This document shows positions 50,016 to 59,217 of a stretch of 64,000 nt of DNA, one piece after another (the first letter of the stretch is position 1; the number at the start of each line of letters is the position of its first letter). The position numbers were made by a program, and so were the translations under genes. This DNA comes from Tetrapyrgos nigripes (taxonomy: Eukaryota > Basidiomycota > Agaricomycetes > Agaricales > Campanellaceae). The stretch spans positions 211,035-275,034 of the forward strand of contig JAACJM010000108.1 in assembly GCA_013368315.1 (NCBI GenBank). Direction: 5' to 3'. Under the pieces are notes generated by a model. That model searched no databases. It was not told the DNA's origin and saw only the letters and a program-made list of their open reading frames with translations.

Positions 50016-51098
50016 ATGGGATTTGTTGTAAAGAGCAGAAGGCAGACATTGGTTGATCTGGATGTTGTTAGGGATGTGTGAGTCGCTTTTTTGCCCTCCT
50101 CCATTCTGGCCGTTTTCGAAACCCTTACTCACCTGCCTCTTACCAGCATCATCAGCCTCTGCGACGGCCTTACTGTCTCCTTTGCCCTAATTGCTGGCCT
50201 CTCCTCCCGCCTCGTCGTCCTTGGCGGTGTAGCCATACTCATCACTGGAGCCATATCCATGGGTATAGGCGGATTCCTCGCTTCTTAAGCTGAGCACGAT
50301 CATTACCGGTATTTGAAAAACCACATAGCGGCTTGGGTAATCAGAAGTTGTGCTGGCGAGATGCTTGGGCCTGTGGGCGTTGATGAGGGGACTTGTAGGG
50401 CTGTTGCTAAGGCGTTGAGGTGGAGTAAGGATGTGGGTTTGACGGCGTTTTTGCTCAAGTTTGGGCAGGGGTTGGGTTGGTGTTTCTTCGTTGTTTTCCC
50501 TCTCCTTGTTACTAATCCTCTTTTCCGTTCGCAAGAAGTCCCCACCTCCCGCCTCTACATCTCTGCCTTCACCATCGGACTCGGATACCTCATTGGTGGA
50601 CTTGTCCCGCTGTTCCCATACTTCTTCATACCTCAAGCTTCGACGGTGTTGATTTACTCGCGTGTGGTGATGGGAGTGGTGCTGTTGGTGTTTGGTGCGA
50701 TTAAGGCTCAGGTAAGCGATCGGTATTTCTACTCTACTCTACTCCACTTACCGGTCCTCGTCTTGGTGCCTTTTTGTGTTTGTTGGGCCTTCGTTTTCTT
50801 CCCCTCTTTGCTTCCCCCTACCCTTTCTCATCTTTCCCGCCTTTATCTTGTTTATTCTCTATCCCCCCGCCCCCTTCCTGCCAAACCTTCATCTAACACT
50901 CACACTTCCACGCAAACTCAAACCCAAACCAACCGCTAACTCAACTTCAAACAGGTTACCGGAGCATACACATCCAACTCTACCCTCGGCGTCTGGAAAG
51001 GTATCGTTTGGGGTGCAGTGTCGACTCTACTCGTTGGTGGGTTAGCAGCTGGAGCAGCGCTTGGGATTGTAAAGGCTTTGGAGGGGGGTGGGGAGTAG
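50016..51098 (+). pseudogene. CCC1: CCC1/VIT-family vacuolar iron/manganese transporter with premature stop
   Basis: Exons 50016-50077, 50147-50475, 50536-50711 and 50955-51098 encode the CCC1 fold: VRDVIISLCDGLTVSFALIAGLSS (spanning intron 1), GAISMGIGGFLAS, HIAAWVIRSCAGEM, AFLLKFGQGLE, PTSRLYISAFTIGLGYLIGG, and a last helix pair ending GIVKALEGGGE. Five hydrophobic segments and the metal-binding region fit the family, which moves cytosolic Fe2+/Mn2+ into the vacuole. A TAA at 50286-50288 interrupts the conserved GFLAS-(Q)-AEHDHY stretch where a Gln codon is expected, so one C-to-T change truncates it. The MULE sits directly after the stop codon. Start at 50016 is the first ATG in phase; an upstream start is possible. 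Confidence 0.85.
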
Positions 51099-51106
51099 AT
51101 GTTTGG
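51095..51106. repeat. Left 12 bp target-site duplication of the MULE
   Basis: GTAGATGTTTGG, identical to 59206-59217. It includes the CCC1 stop codon TAG. Confidence 0.85.
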
Positions 51107-51756
51107 TATAGGTAAATCTGCGGGTACCCCCTGCGGGGCTGCGGGTACGGCCCAGGTACCAGTAATCATTTGAGTTCACCAATGTATGACATACATACGA
51201 GCATTTGTAACATAGTAGAGAGGCGTAAAAGTGTACATAAAGCTTGTAAATGGACTTCAACGAAGTGTAGTGAAACTCAAATGTACATGGATAAGCACAG
51301 CCACTTACTCCCATTCACATTAGAGTCTCATTGATAACTCAAGTATTTCTCCACAAAACAGCCTGGATATTATTGCTAAAAGCCTATTGCATGCAGTAGA
51401 GACTATTTTCATTCTTTGCATGCCAATATTCTATGAGTTATGTACCAAAATTACCCTTAGACTCGAAATGAAGCCTGCACATGAATAAAACTCTTCATAA
51501 TTCGCATTGTAAATGCAGTCTACTCATTCTAATACATCACTGAGCTAATGTTTCAAGTGTTTACTAAGGCAATTTGTAGATCCAATTCCTAGAAAAGTCG
51601 AGATCAATGTGAATTTAGCCTAAGATTTAGTAGAATTTATGATAGAAATTCATTTCTACACATTGAATATGTCAAGGTACTGGCTATTAGTACAGGAGCT
51701 ACAGCATTCCTTATTTTCAATCCATTAGAAGTGATTTAGATGTTGTGTGGATGCTG

Positions 51757-51885
51757 GTAATGCACCCGCATGGTACCCGCATGGTACCCGCAGTGGCTGT
51801 GCACATGCGGGTACCCATGCGGGCACCATGCGGGCACCATGCGGGTACCATGCGGGCACCTATGCGGGTACCTAGCGGATACTGT
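51757..51885. repeat. Subterminal GCGGGTACC array, left side of the MULE
   Basis: About ten degenerate copies of ATGCGGGTACC/GGTACCCGCAT in both orientations, with a shorter cluster at 51117-51165. Likely transposase-binding sites. Confidence 0.75.
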
Positions 51886-52233: not shown

Positions 52234-55200
52234 TTATTGTTTCCTTTGTTTCTTGGATTTTTTATTATTCTCTGTCTCCTCAGTCTCTTTTGTTTGATCT
52301 GCCACCCGCTTAGATCTACGCAACTGTGCATTCTCCTGGACTGTCTGCAATGTCTTAACTACTTTCTCTTTAGCAAGGTCAGGCCTTTCAGCTGTAAGTC
52401 CAGCTTCTTGTAAAGCCTTTTTACTACGTTCTGCTGCTTGTTCCTTGGTCAATGGCCTTGGTTTTGGCCGTGGAGGTGCATGGTTCTGCTTCTCTGCCTC
52501 CTTCTCCCTTACCTTCTGCTCCATCTTCTCTCTTTCAGCTTTACAAAATTCACTCTCCTAAACCACAGTTAGCAAGAACAATATTTAATAACGCCAAGAT
52601 AATACTGCACCTCAAGGTCAGATTCTGTAGCAACACGCAGATCTGGATCATTTTTCTCTGGACCATCATAAGGCCACCACAAATCCTCAGGAGGACCAAC
52701 ATCCAGGCCCCATTGTTCGCTTCCTGCCACACCAGCCTTCTGTGATCTATCAAACATGACTTTTTCCAGAATTTGGAGAGCCTCTCTATCAACATCTGCC
52801 TTCAATCTCTTCATTTTGCCATCCACAGTCTTCCCACTAAAATCAACCAATCGTTGCCATGCTTGGTGGAGAACTGACTGCTCTCTCTCCAGCTCTGACA
52901 ACCCTGCTTCAATACATCCCAAGAAAGTCTCACAGTGACAGTGAGCCAAAAAGAGAGTTCGTGCATGTGCAATGCATAGTTCAAAGTCTTTAGGTGGGGC
53001 TGATAAAAATGACTGCACATTGATGTGGAGCCAGTTCAAAATGCGAGCCTGATCATCTGTTGTGATCCCACCAGTAAAGTATGCAGGACAAGGACGTCTA
53101 AACAGTGTAACTGCTGTCATGTATTGGTGGTTTCTAAAAATTGCATATCCAGGATTACCTTCATTCAGGTACAAGGCAAGGGCTGGAACACTTGACACAG
53201 AAAGTGCAGAAAATTCAGAATTGATGGTATGATGCAAAATTTTTTGCAGCATAGCCTTGTGCTTGTACAGAGCGCGGTCTACTTCTGTGTTGTACTGATA
53301 TACTTGCCAATCAGAGGCAATATCTGCTGGATCACGCTCCTCATGTGTTCGGATGAACCTGCCCAACTGTTTAAATAATCAGTATGAAAAAAGATCTTAA
53401 AGTACTAGATTTTTTATACCCTGATTGATCGCCGACCCTCACGATCACCATACAATCCATCAACCAGCCTTTTCACAGAAATATTCTCCAAGACCTTGTT
53501 AGCGTTCTCATGCTTAATACCTCGCCACATTTTGATTGTCCATTTGCCTTTTTCCTGATGAAGAAGTCGGCCAGGATAATAAAACAATGTGTTGGCATCC
53601 ATCTGAACCAAGACAGTGCAGCCAGCACTATCACAAATTAGTCAAATGGAAGAACTGACAATGCAACACTACTTACTAGAGACGCTTAGCAACATTAGCC
53701 CGCAATTGAACACCTTGCTTCAGACTTTCTATGATTTGTGAGCTTGAAGTATCTAACATTGATGCAGGATCACAGACATGGCATAGAAATTCCCCTTTGA
53801 TTGTTGGTTCCATGCGGTTGACAAGGCAGGCCAAATGTGACCATCTGTGACATTTATCACATTGGACAGTGACCTGTTTGATGAGCTCACGATGGCCATC
53901 ATTCTCAACACCACATCGACAAAGAATGGGAAGGGGTGTTGAAGGTGGTGGGGAACTTGAGGGAATTGTCCGAAGAGGTGTAGTTGGAGATGGGCCTGGG
54001 GAAGGTGAGTAGGAGTGTGCTGGTTCAGGTTTAACCACTTGTCTGGAGTCAGAGTGGGTTTGTTGATACTCTGTGATAGAGATGTGTGGTTTCCAGTTCA
54101 CTGTTTCCTCTCTGGTCATTTCTCTATATCCTGGCTTTGTCAGAGTGGTTGATCTGGTCCCATCCAACTGCAGGTCCAGCTTCTGGAGGGCTATCTTCAC
54201 ACAATCTTCATGGAATTTTTCCTGTGCTACAATGCCACCTTTGAGGCTATAGACAGCACAGACTGTTTGGTAACCATCAGGCTGGTATCCTGTTGTTCCA
54301 GCAAGTAAATCTCCAATCTTCCCTTTCACAAGCTGACTGTAACCCATATTCTCCATTCCATCATATGAAAACACTGCTGATTGCCCACCTGTTGTTGGGA
54401 TCAATGTAACACACCGAAAGTGTGCTTTGTTTGTGAACATGCGTGCCACAAGTTTGTATACCACTCCATCTCTTGAACCTGAGGCTTTTGAGCCTGGGTA
54501 TAGTTCACGAGGGAAATCCCAATCTGGTTGATTGCCTTTTTCATCCATACCTGGTCGGATGATGAGTACAGATGGTATCCAGCTAATAAACTCCATTTTC
54601 TGGCACTGCCCATTGCAATAGATGTCTGGATCATTGGTGCCCTCCTTTGTGTGGCATCTCCAGCAACCCTGGATTTCCTGTGGAACCTCCATTGAGGATA
54701 GGTTGAAAATTGACTGGAACCAGTTCTCAATCTTCCCCCCAAACAGTTGGAGATATCTTGCTGCTGGCTCTTGCCAGGTGGAAGATGTGGTCCAAGGACT
54801 CTCAACTTGGTAATGGCCTTCACTGCAGCTTGAGAGCCTTTGTACTACAGGAAGAAAGAACTTAACAGCTTCTGGATTGACTGGTCCACCTCGTGGGCGA
54901 ATGAGATAATATAGCCAATACTGTAAATAATCAGTTGCCATGCTTGATAAATTGCACTATCCTTGACTTACTAGTGCAGAATGATATTCATGTTCCTGTG
55001 TTCATAAGCAATCAATATCTCTGATTTGTACTGTGATCAGAGTAAAACTGAATTACCATAGCATATGAGTTCTCTGCTATTGACAAGCAAAATGGAAGGC
55101 CTGCAAGGACATGTTTGAATGTATCACGTATGTTTTGAAGGATAACTGATTTTCCAGCTTTAGAGCCTGGAAAAGTGGAAAGAGGCCAAGCTCTGCGGTT

Positions 55201-58200
55201 GCTAAGGGTTTTGTGCAGGTGTGAAATTGGATAGGTTATGTCTGCAGCAAAACTTGAGAAGTCCTTCCAATGTCCATGACATGCCAAAGTCACATAAATG
55301 ATCTCCAATGATGCATCAAGCCAACAAGAGTTATTTGCCCATGGATAGCTAGCAAATTCCTTTGCAGCAGCAAGGTTAACTATTATGGATGTGAATGAAT
55401 CAGTTGGTCTGGTTTTCCCTGGAGAAAGCTCTTTGTAGCGACCCTGAGTTAACTGCTTGTCAACTATGTCTGGAGGAGAAGGTGATCCATCTTCTGATTC
55501 AGAGCTATTGGGGACTGTAATCTTGACTTGTTTTCGGGGCCGTTTCAGTGTAGACTGAGTGTCAGGAGCTCGACCTTCTCTGAGAGCAGATCGATCACGT
55601 TTTCGGGGAGATGGTTTGTGGCTATAACTCTGTCTTCTACGTCGAGGAATTTCTGTTAATGTTTCTGCCTCACAGCGCTCAAGCTGGTCCAGTTTACGCT
55701 GGCGTTGAGATCGACCATATCGAATGGGAAGTCCATCTGTCTCACAGATTAATCAAAGGTAAGTCCTTGAGACTGCAACTTACGAATGTATGAGTCATGC
55801 ATTCTTTGAAAGTGTCGCATAACCTTGAGTAATCCATCAAAGCCTTGGATAATATCCTTGTTTTTGCCTGTCAAATAATATCAGTGAATTATAATTAATG
55901 TAAGTATAGAAATGACTGCAAACCTGCTATTTGGTATATGACAGAGTGAACAGATTCCTCTGCATTGGTTGTATCAGGAAGCTTTGAGGCAAGTTTGCTG
56001 TCCATTTTTCGTTGGCTATGAAAAATCATACTTGCATGTTCTGGAGCCAACCACCAATTCAGCCATGCCTCCAGCCCTGGCCATGTTTCCTTCATGATCT
56101 TCACAACTCTATCAAACACAGCAGAATTCTCAGCTATAACCATCTGTCTGCACAGTTCTTCAAACTCAGCTCTGCTGTCAGGTGGCACATGGTTACTGAG
56201 TCGAGCCACACGTGTTACAGATTTTTCAAAGTGATATCTGCATCCCTTGATCAGTGACTGAGCAGCATTCTCTAGTTCAGTGCGTGTCCGAGTGTTGTCC
56301 TCTTGGCGGATGAAATAGTCGGTGAATGCAGAGATAAATCCCAAGCGCTGAGCATCACTGAAATCAACAACCTAATCAAAAAAATCAGCTTTTTTCAAAA
56401 CCATAGAAAATCTAGTGCCCTCACAAGTGCAAACAACTCATCAGTAATTTTCTCATTATGTTCATGTGCAGCTTCAGCAATAGCCTCAATGACAGCAGTG
56501 AAATGCCAATGGTAATGCTGAGTTGTAACACCATTTGCATAGCTGAACATGGAGGGAACCCATCTATCAATTACAGTATTGAATGTAGTAGTGGAAATCA
56601 ACACAGCATTGGGATCTGCCCAATACTTGTGTGCACCATCAGTCAGCATACCCTCTAATGGCAAAGGGCCTTCAACAAGCTCAGCTTTTGGCAAGAGTTG
56701 GTCCTGCATCCACTTTGAGTGAAATGATATGACACATTCAGGCTCCCTTCCTACAGTATTGATTCTGATTTGGACTTCATCTTCATGTTGCTGGATCCAG
56801 GAGTGAAACTGGTTGATGAATGACCATCCAACTTCTGCTGTAGCTCCTTTTGTCATTTTTTTAGTTTCATAACGGTAGGTTTCAATGTTTGCAAATTTCT
56901 GTGCCAACTGTGGTGCTGGTGGAGTTGGACCATCTAGAGTCTCTCCTCCTTCATATGACTCCAAGTGCTTTTTGTGCATGTTGTTCCCGAGATGCTGCCG
57001 AGTGTCTTTAGCCTCCTGTGCAGTGAGATGTTTGGTGTATGGAATCCGAGGATGATTGTGGCAACCAGCATGGATGTAATGATAAAGCCGTGTGGTGATG
57101 TCATCTCCCACCTGTGCATATTCAATAAGAAAAGACATTGCTCCACAGTCAAAATGTTCCAGTGAGAACCCACATATACAGTACTCATTTAAGCACTGTG
57201 CTTCCAGAATCTTTTTCTCAATTTTTGGCCGAGTAATGACTTGACACTGAGGATTAGTGCATCGTAAGACACCAAGACACTTCTTGTAGCTCTCCTTCCC
57301 CCCAGCTATTGTAGTAGCATGGATTGAACCCTTTTGATTTTTCTTTCCATTGTTTCCCTTGCAGTTCCGTGTAGCCCACTGAACAGCTAGCATTCCATGC
57401 TTCATGTATGTAGCATGATCAAGGTCAATGGCAAATTTTCCATTTGGCCATCCATTCCAGAAACCCTGTTCCAAATTGTCAACAGTAGTAAATTGCACAT
57501 TAACATCATGCCCATGTCGGCACTGTGGTTCAGGTTGAGGGTCCAGAGGAACAAAAGCAGTAAGCCGGGCAGGATCAGTGAGATCTACAGGGCAAGCAGC
57601 TTGATTAGTTGCTGGAGGTGGTAGTGGTGCAGTTCGAACAACTGCTGGAGGGTGTGATGAAGAGGGTGGTACAGTTTGACTAGCTACTGTGGTTGGTGGA
57701 CATAGTGGTTTTTGTAAGTTCCCAACTGAGTGACTGGTAGATTGCACTGAGGGCACAACTGCAGATTTGCTTGGTATCACATTGGATTGTGGATCTGTTG
57801 GAATGGTACTAGGCTGCACTGTAGAGGTAGTTAGCAAATAACTCAATGGTACAAAAAGATAGTCTCATACTGATGGAAGGGACTGAATTTTGATATGTCT
57901 GTAGTGCATGTGTATTGAATTGCATCTGGGATGTGTATCCTATAAGTATCAGAATAGAAGGTATTTAAATTGGTTGGAGAGAATCCAAATATGTGGCCTA
58001 CTTGCCTTCGCGATAGACTTGAAATTGAACAACTTCAGCGTTTGTAGCTGTAAAATCTATATGCATGCTATTCTCTTGTGGCAACCTGACCTGGGTTTCA
58101 TCTCGACGTGTAGGTAGGTGTTGCAGGCCTTATATTACAAGAAAGTCAGAAAGATAAATATTTTGAAAAGAAATCAGAATTAACCACTCTTGTCCTCGCA

Positions 58201-58867
58201 TGATTCATTTACGGGAGGCACTGGAATCAAGGATAACATGTAAGATCCTGCTGAACTGATTTCAAAACAATGGTACTCTTACTTGTTCTAACTTCTGGAC
58301 AACCCAGCTCTCCATTGTCTATATCCATGTCTGAGGCATTCCCTGGACAAATTCATGAAAGATATATCCACTACCAATGGGAAGTACATACCATTATCTT
58401 TCTCTTCCCCTGAATCAGGATTTCCTAGGTATTCTTCAGGTGCTATAGGGGATTCATGGTTAGTCCCTACAACTTAATGTGTTTGTGTCACTCACGGTGT
58501 ACAAAACAGTCATTATTAGGGGGTAAAGAAGTAGATACATTTGTATCTTAATCAAAATGGTATAAGGATATATTCAGATGTGGTGAATACATAAGACTCA
58601 CGTCTTGAAATTTCATCTTGATGTAATACAAGTGTATCTTCAGTATTGCCTGTATATCAGCTGTGAGTAGCGTGATAAACCTGCTATCAATGGACTGACT
58701 TACTGAATGTGAAATCAAAACTATCGTCACTTTCTGAATCACTCTCAGGGAAAATAGCATCAACAGCGGGGTGTATGATGCTTTTACCAAGCCATTTCTA
58801 CAAAAAGAATATTCTATGTGACTAAGGCTACATAACGTTGGATACTCATGCTTACAAGGAGTCCCAT
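52234..58867 (-). CDS. MULE transposase fused to a USP-type cysteine peptidase and a PHD finger
   Basis: Nineteen exons (58867-58856, 58797-58704, 58649-58602, 58546-58496, 58442-58392, 58342-58283, 58220-58185, 58128-58091, 58047-58002, 57939-57871, 57818-56425, 56371-55924, 55867-55784, 55736-55057, 54995-54972, 54920-53677, 53627-53420, 53366-52611, 52557-52234) keep phase throughout: 1,888 aa. After an acidic, Ser/Pro-rich N-terminus comes a WRKY-GCM1-type zinc domain (~284-430; WATRNCKGNNGKK, CLGVLRCTNPQC). The transposase core has D562 (MLTDGAHKYW), D636/D639 (VVDFSDAQR), the C677/H680 motif (GCRYHF) and E771/772 (TTNAEESVH). A peptidase follows, with Cys box NNSCWLDAS (C948), His box KAHFRC (H1212) and YDGMEN. 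A PHD finger lies at ~1379-1428 (CDKCHRWSHLACL) and a Lys-rich tail at the end. Exon 1 is only 12 nt, so the start is the least certain part. Confidence 0.85.
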
Positions 58868-59117: not shown

Positions 59118-59190
59118 TGGGTACCCGCATGACCCGCATGACCCGCATGACCCGCATGTACCCGCAGTGTACCCGCATGACGTACCCGCA
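59118..59190. repeat. Subterminal ACCCGCATG array, right side of the MULE
   Basis: Four consecutive ACCCGCATG units followed by GTACCCGCAG-type variants, mirroring the left arrays in inverse orientation. Confidence 0.85.
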
Positions 59191-59205: not shown

Positions 59206-59217
59206 GTAGATGTTTGG
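59206..59217. repeat. Right 12 bp target-site duplication of the MULE
   Basis: GTAGATGTTTGG, identical to 51095-51106. What follows is the original CCC1 3' flank. Confidence 0.85.

What the first reader, a model, noticed from the sequence alone, without database searches (positions are those of the whole stretch)
52234..58867. A single transposon gene joins a GCM-type zinc domain, MULE transposase, USP-like peptidase and PHD finger
Seen: 19 exons keep phase for 1,888 codons. D/D/CxxH/E motifs of a MULE core are followed by NNSCWLDAS and KAHFRC...YDGMEN boxes, then a Cys-rich CDKCHRWSHLAC segment. Known: plant Kaonashi-type MULEs acquired a ULP1 protease, and GCM/WRKY zinc domains are associated with MULE transposases. 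Inference: this fungal element carries a deubiquitinase- or desumoylase-like peptidase plus a histone-reading finger. It could remove ubiquitin or SUMO from the transposase or from silencing chromatin, and target insertion by histone marks. I do not know of a published description of this combination.
Basis: partly seen in the sequence, partly recalled or inferred. Interest (0 to 1): 0.88.

Follow-up and report, generated by a model that had tools for sequence, protein, structure and literature searches.

The report
Mushroom transposon carrying a deubiquitinase-like enzyme
A recently active jumping gene of a mushroom encodes one large protein that joins a DNA-moving enzyme to a ubiquitin-protease-like domain and a chromatin-reading finger, and relatives in other mushrooms keep the same plan, so it offers a concrete case for asking why a transposon carries its own deubiquitinase.

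The parts
51095..51103 (.). left copy of the 9-bp target duplication GTAGATGTT
   Evidence: same 9 bases at 59206-59214; L059, L060 and L061 show other matching 9-mers
51104..51127 (+). left terminal inverted repeat (GGTATAGGTAAATCTGCGGGTAC after one variable base)
51762..51872 (.). left subterminal cluster of GCGGG-containing repeats, about 11 bp apart; possible transposase binding sites (inference)
   Evidence: GCGGGTAC or its complement 11 times in the element (terminal repeats included), twice in the rest of the window
52234..58867 (-). single transposon gene, 18 exons, 1,901 codons
   Evidence: order supported by P0002, P0004, P0005, P0006
57013..57459 (-). GCM-like zinc region, residues 302-450
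   Evidence: profile from the family; Pfam GCM in 8 of 40 relatives, not in this protein
55860..56733 (-). DDE-type transposase core, residues 544-798: D575, D649, C690xxH693, E784
   Evidence: family profile in 41 of 41
54213..55353 (-). USP-fold cysteine peptidase-like domain, residues 952-1294: C961, H1225, D1245; C1090/H1094/C1144/C1160 as a likely zinc site
   Evidence: fold on two relatives
53772..53927 (-). PHD finger, residues 1390-1441, with CxC, CxxC, HxxC, CxxC ligands
   Evidence: (E 1.6e-4 and 9.1e-5, just under Pfam's cut-off)
53358..53626 (-). conserved beta-rich FYYPGR segment, residues 1474-1545, Tudor-like by eye only
   Evidence: strands in the model of relative P0030
52662..53090 (-). 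conserved helical tail, residues 1635-1777, no known family
   Evidence: helices in the model of relative P0030
59182..59205 (-). right terminal inverted repeat, ending ATACCCG
   Evidence: the 18-base end pattern was found in 17 loci and is followed by CG and then by unrelated flank in each; 16 distinct flanks
59206..59214 (.). right copy of the 9-bp target duplication

Best explanation
It is an autonomous, recently mobile DNA transposon of Mutator (MULE) type. Its one protein carries the cut-and-paste enzyme and, in the same chain, a USP-fold deubiquitinase-like enzyme and a PHD finger. Shown: the element, its ends and copies, one gene with this order, the USP fold in relatives, conserved catalytic residues, and purifying selection in the exons tested. 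Inferred: the GCM-like zinc region binds the element's ends and the DDE core cuts and joins. The USP domain, tethered to the transpososome, removes ubiquitin (or a ubiquitin-like protein) from the transposase itself or from chromatin at the donor or target, so that the complex is not degraded or blocked. The PHD finger helps hold it on nucleosomes and is an accessory, since related elements keep the USP without it.
Against: No Pfam UCH or MULE match in the window protein or 40 relatives. No PDB sequence match for the USP segment. Profile comparison with Pfam-recognised MULEs of the same genome is weak: probability 4%, score 24.7 against a best of 24.5 in 100 column shuffles; only CxxH lies in register, D649 is three residues off in a low-confidence stretch. 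The models have good local but low overall confidence (pTM 0.44 and 0.47) and are of relatives P0012 and P0030, not of this protein. The residue five before the Cys is Trp in 26 of 31 aligned members; in host USPs I recall Asn there, in the oxyanion hole, so activity cannot be taken for granted. PAN2, a pseudo-ubiquitin-hydrolase, is among the matches. Five loci (four distinct deletions) lack the USP Cys through the PHD yet have the element's right end, so a copy need not encode it to persist; two of the four deletions also take part of the transposase core. No transcript was examined.
Confidence: 0.58

Rival explanations
1. The peptidase acts on SUMO rather than ubiquitin, like USPL1, reversing SUMO-dependent silencing of the transposon or its chromatin.
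For: For P0030, USPL1-SUMO structures are among the top Foldseek rows (7zju_C rank 3, E 1.2e-9, TMt 0.61; 7p99_A rank 14). I recall that USPL1's Cys box also reads CWLD; no call shows it.
Against: USP46 (TMt 0.61) and USP18 (0.62-0.64, an ISG15 enzyme) match equally well. The family keeps Cys/His positions like a USP finger zinc site, which I recall USPL1 lacks.
Confidence: 0.22
2. The USP-fold domain is catalytically silent and serves as a ubiquitin- or protein-binding scaffold, like the PAN2 pseudo-USP.
Against: Cys is kept in 32 of 32 members aligned there and Asp in 35 of 38; Cys/His/Asp in 13 of 13. A pure scaffold would not need them.
Confidence: 0.2
3. The gene is a chance run of neighbouring genes or captured host fragments joined by my splice model.
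For: P0001's annotation of the same element differs at several exons; the window has many small 5' exons of uncertain use.
Against: Uninterrupted frames across both joints; same order in relatives of other genera; constraint in the five exons tested; none of the 26 listed Pfam UCH matches of the genome lies on an element copy, which speaks against a fresh host capture.
Confidence: 0.03
4. The transposase belongs to another superfamily (for instance a lineage near Rehavkus or KDZ) rather than to MULEs proper.
For: No Pfam MULE match; weak profile match with D649 out of register. Rehavkus, an outgroup to MULEs, also has a PHD finger and 9-bp duplications (PMC6446971, passages).
Against: 9-bp duplication; CxxH in register with same-genome MULEs and a score above 100 of 100 shuffles, by a small margin; no Pfam KDZ match.
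Confidence: 0.22

Closest known systems
Plant Kaonashi MULEs and other ULP1-bearing MULEs
   Same: Mutator elements that carry a ubiquitin-like-protein protease (PMC13317346 and PMC2528002, passages).
   Different: There the protease is ULP1 (another fold, recalled), a captured domain that in Kaonashi MULEs lies in the reverse orientation to mudrA; here a USP-fold domain is fused in one chain with the transposase.
Rehavkus (outgroup to MULEs)
   Same: 9-bp duplication, one ORF, a PHD finger (Table 1 of PMC6446971, passage).
   Different: Known from arthropods and annelids; the PHD is reported in the transposase domain; the terms peptidase, ubiquitin, ULP and GCM do not occur in that paper's main text.
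Host USPs (USP30, USP46, USP18, Ubp8) and USPL1
   Same: Fold, triad residues and a likely finger zinc site.
   Different: 10-18% identity in the VIA rows, no Pfam UCH match, Trp five before the Cys, fused to a transposase.
RAG1/RAG2
   Same: Transposase plus a ubiquitin-system enzyme (RAG1's N-terminal ubiquitin ligase, PMC10799480, passage) plus a PHD (RAG2, recalled).
   Different: Ligase instead of protease, two proteins, Transib-type transposase.
TET/JBP-bearing fungal DNA transposons (Kyakuja, Zisupton and others)
   Same: Mushroom and other fungal transposons that carry an enzyme likely to counter silencing (PMC12730594, abstract).
   Different: DNA demethylation enzyme; ubiquitin, peptidase, PHD, GCM, MULE and Mutator do not occur in that paper's main text.

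Membership tests
Mutator-like elements (MULE) | 8-11 bp (typically 9) target duplication (range recalled) | tested here: met
   9 bp in 4 of 4 copies with both ends in view
Mutator-like elements (MULE) | terminal inverted repeats | tested here: met
   about 24 bp with small differences; some MULEs lack them
Mutator-like elements (MULE) | DDE core with CxxH between second D and E | tested here: met
   motifs by eye and pattern; the core was not folded alone
Mutator-like elements (MULE) | profile similarity to known MULE transposases | tested here: inconclusive
   no Pfam MULE match; hhalign probability 4%, score just above 100 of 100 shuffles, CxxH in register, D649 not
USP (peptidase family C19) fold | overall fold | tested here: met
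USP (peptidase family C19) fold | Cys, His, Asp/Asn triad | tested here: met
   13 of 13 in A2; geometry not inspected
USP (peptidase family C19) fold | sequence profile match (Pfam UCH) | tested here: not met
   none; so it works like a USP by fold and residues, and I do not file it in the curated sequence family
USP (peptidase family C19) fold | deubiquitinating activity | not testable with these tools
   needs an assay
PHD finger | C4HC3 zinc ligands | tested here: met
   CxC read from the sequence; CxxC, HxxC, CxxC by pattern
PHD finger | profile match | tested here: inconclusive
   E 9.1e-5, 22.8 bits against cut-off 24 in the window; 19 of 40 relatives match at E 0.05; nearest solved chain, PHD of SET domain-containing protein 3, E 1.5e-5
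GCM domain | profile match | tested here: inconclusive
   none in the window; 8 of 40 relatives at E 0.05, best 6.1e-5; family profile 36 of 41
Kaonashi-type ULP1 MULE | ULP1 (C48) domain | tested here: not met
   no Pfam C48 match in the window's pieces or in P0001; the peptidase found has a USP fold

The most novel reading that the evidence does not exclude
A transposase, a deubiquitinating enzyme and a methyl-histone reader work as one machine. The PHD (closest in sequence to Set3 and Bye1 fingers, then PHF13 and MLL5) docks on active promoters, and the USP domain strips histone or transposase ubiquitin to open the target. It would be a mirror image of RAG, with a protease in place of the ligase, kept in many mushrooms and, for the transposase-USP part, in rusts.
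Probability: 0.2. Interest if true: 0.87.

Novelty: new variant of a known kind. Interest (0 to 1): 0.66.

Why it matters
What ubiquitin-family proteases do for the transposons that carry them is open; [quoted passage not shown] Here the protease is in the same chain as the transposase, the catalytic residues are conserved, and near-identical copies exist at many sites, so a single Cys-to-Ala change tests its role. Pfam sees neither the transposase core nor the peptidase, and the proteins are named hypothetical, PHD-type or GCM in the sources, so a lineage of mushroom transposons may be passing unseen.

Tried and rejected
Pfam on single exons and joined segments gave, for the domains at issue, only PHD; weak unrelated matches were ignored. 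PDB sequence search with a 13-row USP profile gave hits that I take as chance, and two Cys-box fragments found nothing useful; the fold had to be shown by models. A profile search with the five-protein alignment A1 returned only three proteins, probably because its words come from the variable N-terminus; the region search with P0005 gave 36. KDZ membership was considered because KDZ elements are common in mushrooms (recalled); no KDZ or CxC Pfam model matched. A ULP1-like look of the alternative C-terminus in L063-L066 was tested on rough joined pieces with Pfam and one piece against the PDB: no match, left as a lead. USPL1 is absent from the VIA lists; that excludes nothing. Babu 2006 and Iyer 2014, recalled as relevant to GCM/WRKY and KDZ transposases, are not held and were not read. 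Not-in-print claims rest on the listings of searches in an open-licence library and on passages of five papers; Repbase was not searched.

Rows dropped before counts: P0007 (a helicase) was left out of the 41-protein set. Of 30 proteins with the Cys-box pattern I cropped 14 and aligned 13 as A2 (P0020 left out). In one search the His column drifted in the automatic alignment, so His is counted only in A2. The domain counts come from profiles seeded with the window's own segments and iterated within the same 41 sequences, so they show relatedness, not independent discovery; several USP matches are partial, and some proteins are partial gene models. The right end was found by an exact 18-base pattern, so copies with a changed end were not counted. 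dN/dS covers exons 10, 11, 13, 15 and 17 only, against one sister copy, with dS from 0.87 to 1.52 and no significance test. After checking, I withdrew a statement that D2 lies in register with MULEs and raised the other-superfamily rival from 0.20 to 0.22.

Full report
The element. Comparing the window with other copies from the same assembly fixes the ends at 51104 and 59205, 8,102 bp. Copies L059 and L060 match over the whole length at 99.6 and 99.9%. The window copy is flanked by GTAGATGTT on both sides; L059, L060 and L061 have other matching 9-mers, so 4 of 4 copies with both ends in view show a 9-bp duplication. An exact 18-base right-end pattern occurs in 17 of the loci brought in by the protein searches, the window's own included; in each it is followed by CG and then by flank. 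Two share a flank, leaving 16 distinct sites. The assembly is that of Tetrapyrgos nigripes: annotated protein P0001 is 100% identical over the aligned part and its contig length, 161,001, equals that of contig C187.

The gene. On the minus strand a spliced gene runs from 58867 to 52234: 18 exons, introns of 47-66 bases, 1,901 codons. One intron begins GC, the rest GT. Exon 14 is only 24 bases long, but its eight residues recur in relative P0003. P0001, the existing annotation, differs in the 5' exons and reads another frame in part of exon 15, which loses the His box; my path keeps it.

Is it one gene? In the window itself one 426-codon open frame contains the USP His box and the PHD. In sister locus L063 one 431-codon frame contains the second half of the transposase core (E 1.4e-55) and the USP Cys box (E 1.7e-17). 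Relatives annotated in other genera have the same order.

Domains. Residues 302-450 form a GCM-like zinc region; Pfam GCM matches 8 of 40 relatives, best E 6.1e-5, but not this protein. Residues 544-798 carry D575, D649, C690xxH693 and E784, a D/D/CxxH/E set. No Pfam MULE model matches. A profile comparison with three MULE sequences of the same genome gives only 4% probability; CxxH lies in register, D649 is three residues off in a low-confidence stretch, and the score (24.7) is just above the best of 100 column shuffles (24.5). Together with the 9-bp duplication and inverted ends I place it with MULEs, provisionally.

PHD and beyond. Residues 1390-1441 have the eight ligands: CxC by reading, the other six by pattern. 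The Pfam score, 22.8, is just under the cut-off of 24. The nearest solved chains are the PHD of SET domain-containing protein 3 (Set3; E 1.5e-5) and Bye1 (2.4e-4), then PHF13 and MLL5 at 0.006-0.01, which I recall as H3K4-methyl readers or close to them. WSH, holding the Trp that I recall as part of the cage, is present in 19 of the 25 sequences listed with the six-ligand pattern. A beta-rich segment (1474-1545) and a helical tail (1635-1777) are conserved but unidentified.

Breadth. Among 41 proteins (40 relatives plus the window model) the family profiles match: DDE 41, USP 39, GCM 36, beta segment 30, PHD 29, tail 29; several USP matches are partial. The named sources include Lentinula, Mycena, Trametes, Gloeophyllum, Schizophyllum, Hygrophoropsis, Coprinopsis and Puccinia. 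Two of three Puccinia proteins keep the Cys and His boxes and none of the three matches the PHD profile. Within T. nigripes, the closest subfamily locus (L062) has every part, whereas L063-L066 have GCM, DDE and USP but no PHD, beta segment or tail match in the stretches fetched. So the USP is the more constant companion of this transposase and the PHD is optional; whether rusts and mushrooms share it by descent or by transfer is untested.

Selection and activity. Against L062, dN/dS is 0.28 and 0.19 for transposase exons 10 and 11, 0.22 and 0.22 for exons 13 and 15 with USP and PHD, and 0.16 for exon 17; dS is 0.87-1.52, so values are rough, and the other exons were not tested. Nine loci have the USP-His/PHD exon full-length and free of stops. 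Five loci, four distinct deletions, lack the stretch from the USP Cys through the PHD but have the right end; two of the four deletions also take the CxxH or E of the transposase. They look like non-autonomous derivatives, and show that a copy need not encode the peptidase to persist.

How it probably works. Shown: a mobile element whose transposase chain includes a USP-fold domain kept by selection. Inferred: in the transpososome this domain removes ubiquitin or a relative from the transposase or from local chromatin. I prefer this to a general effect on the host because the domain is in the same chain. The PHD would add chromatin docking in some lineages. The closest published parallels are the ULP1-bearing plant MULEs, Rehavkus for PHD plus 9-bp duplication, RAG1's ligase and TET/JBP-bearing fungal transposons; none has this combination in the passages and abstracts I saw. 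The listings of searches showed no description, but the library holds open-licence papers only.

Noticed in passing
L063 5546-6408, L064 (reverse strand) 135-1064, L066 5523-6560: More distant T. nigripes subfamilies have another C-terminal module where the window has PHD and tail. By eye it resembles a ULP1 protease (HL-IVD, YD, then QSGLYV or DRGIYAV where the Cys would be), possibly with the Cys replaced. No Pfam or PDB match.
   Followed up: partly
P0003: A T. nigripes gene model begins as a family-7 cellobiohydrolase (Pfam PF00840) and continues into a sister element, so a sister copy probably sits in that enzyme gene.
   Followed up: no
50289-51103: A VIT-family gene piece (PF01988, E 8.3e-15) lies just left of the element, and the next open frame ends with a stop at 51096-51098, inside the target duplication; the insertion may be at the very end of that gene.
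   Followed up: partly
51762-51872 and 59118-59189: Clusters of GCGGG-containing short repeats inside both ends of the element; the fuller motif GCGGGTAC is rare elsewhere in the window.
   Followed up: partly
model ma336e03b63e2: The best match in the viral structure library is an uncharacterised bracovirus protein (O92526, 571 alignment columns, E 2.3e-11), longer than the USP domain; it may hold a related transposase fold.
   Followed up: no
G000 C188:107409-108431 and C242:4056-5066: The beta segment and tail occur at 37-43% identity at two loci on contigs for which one search lists no transposase exon.
   Followed up: no
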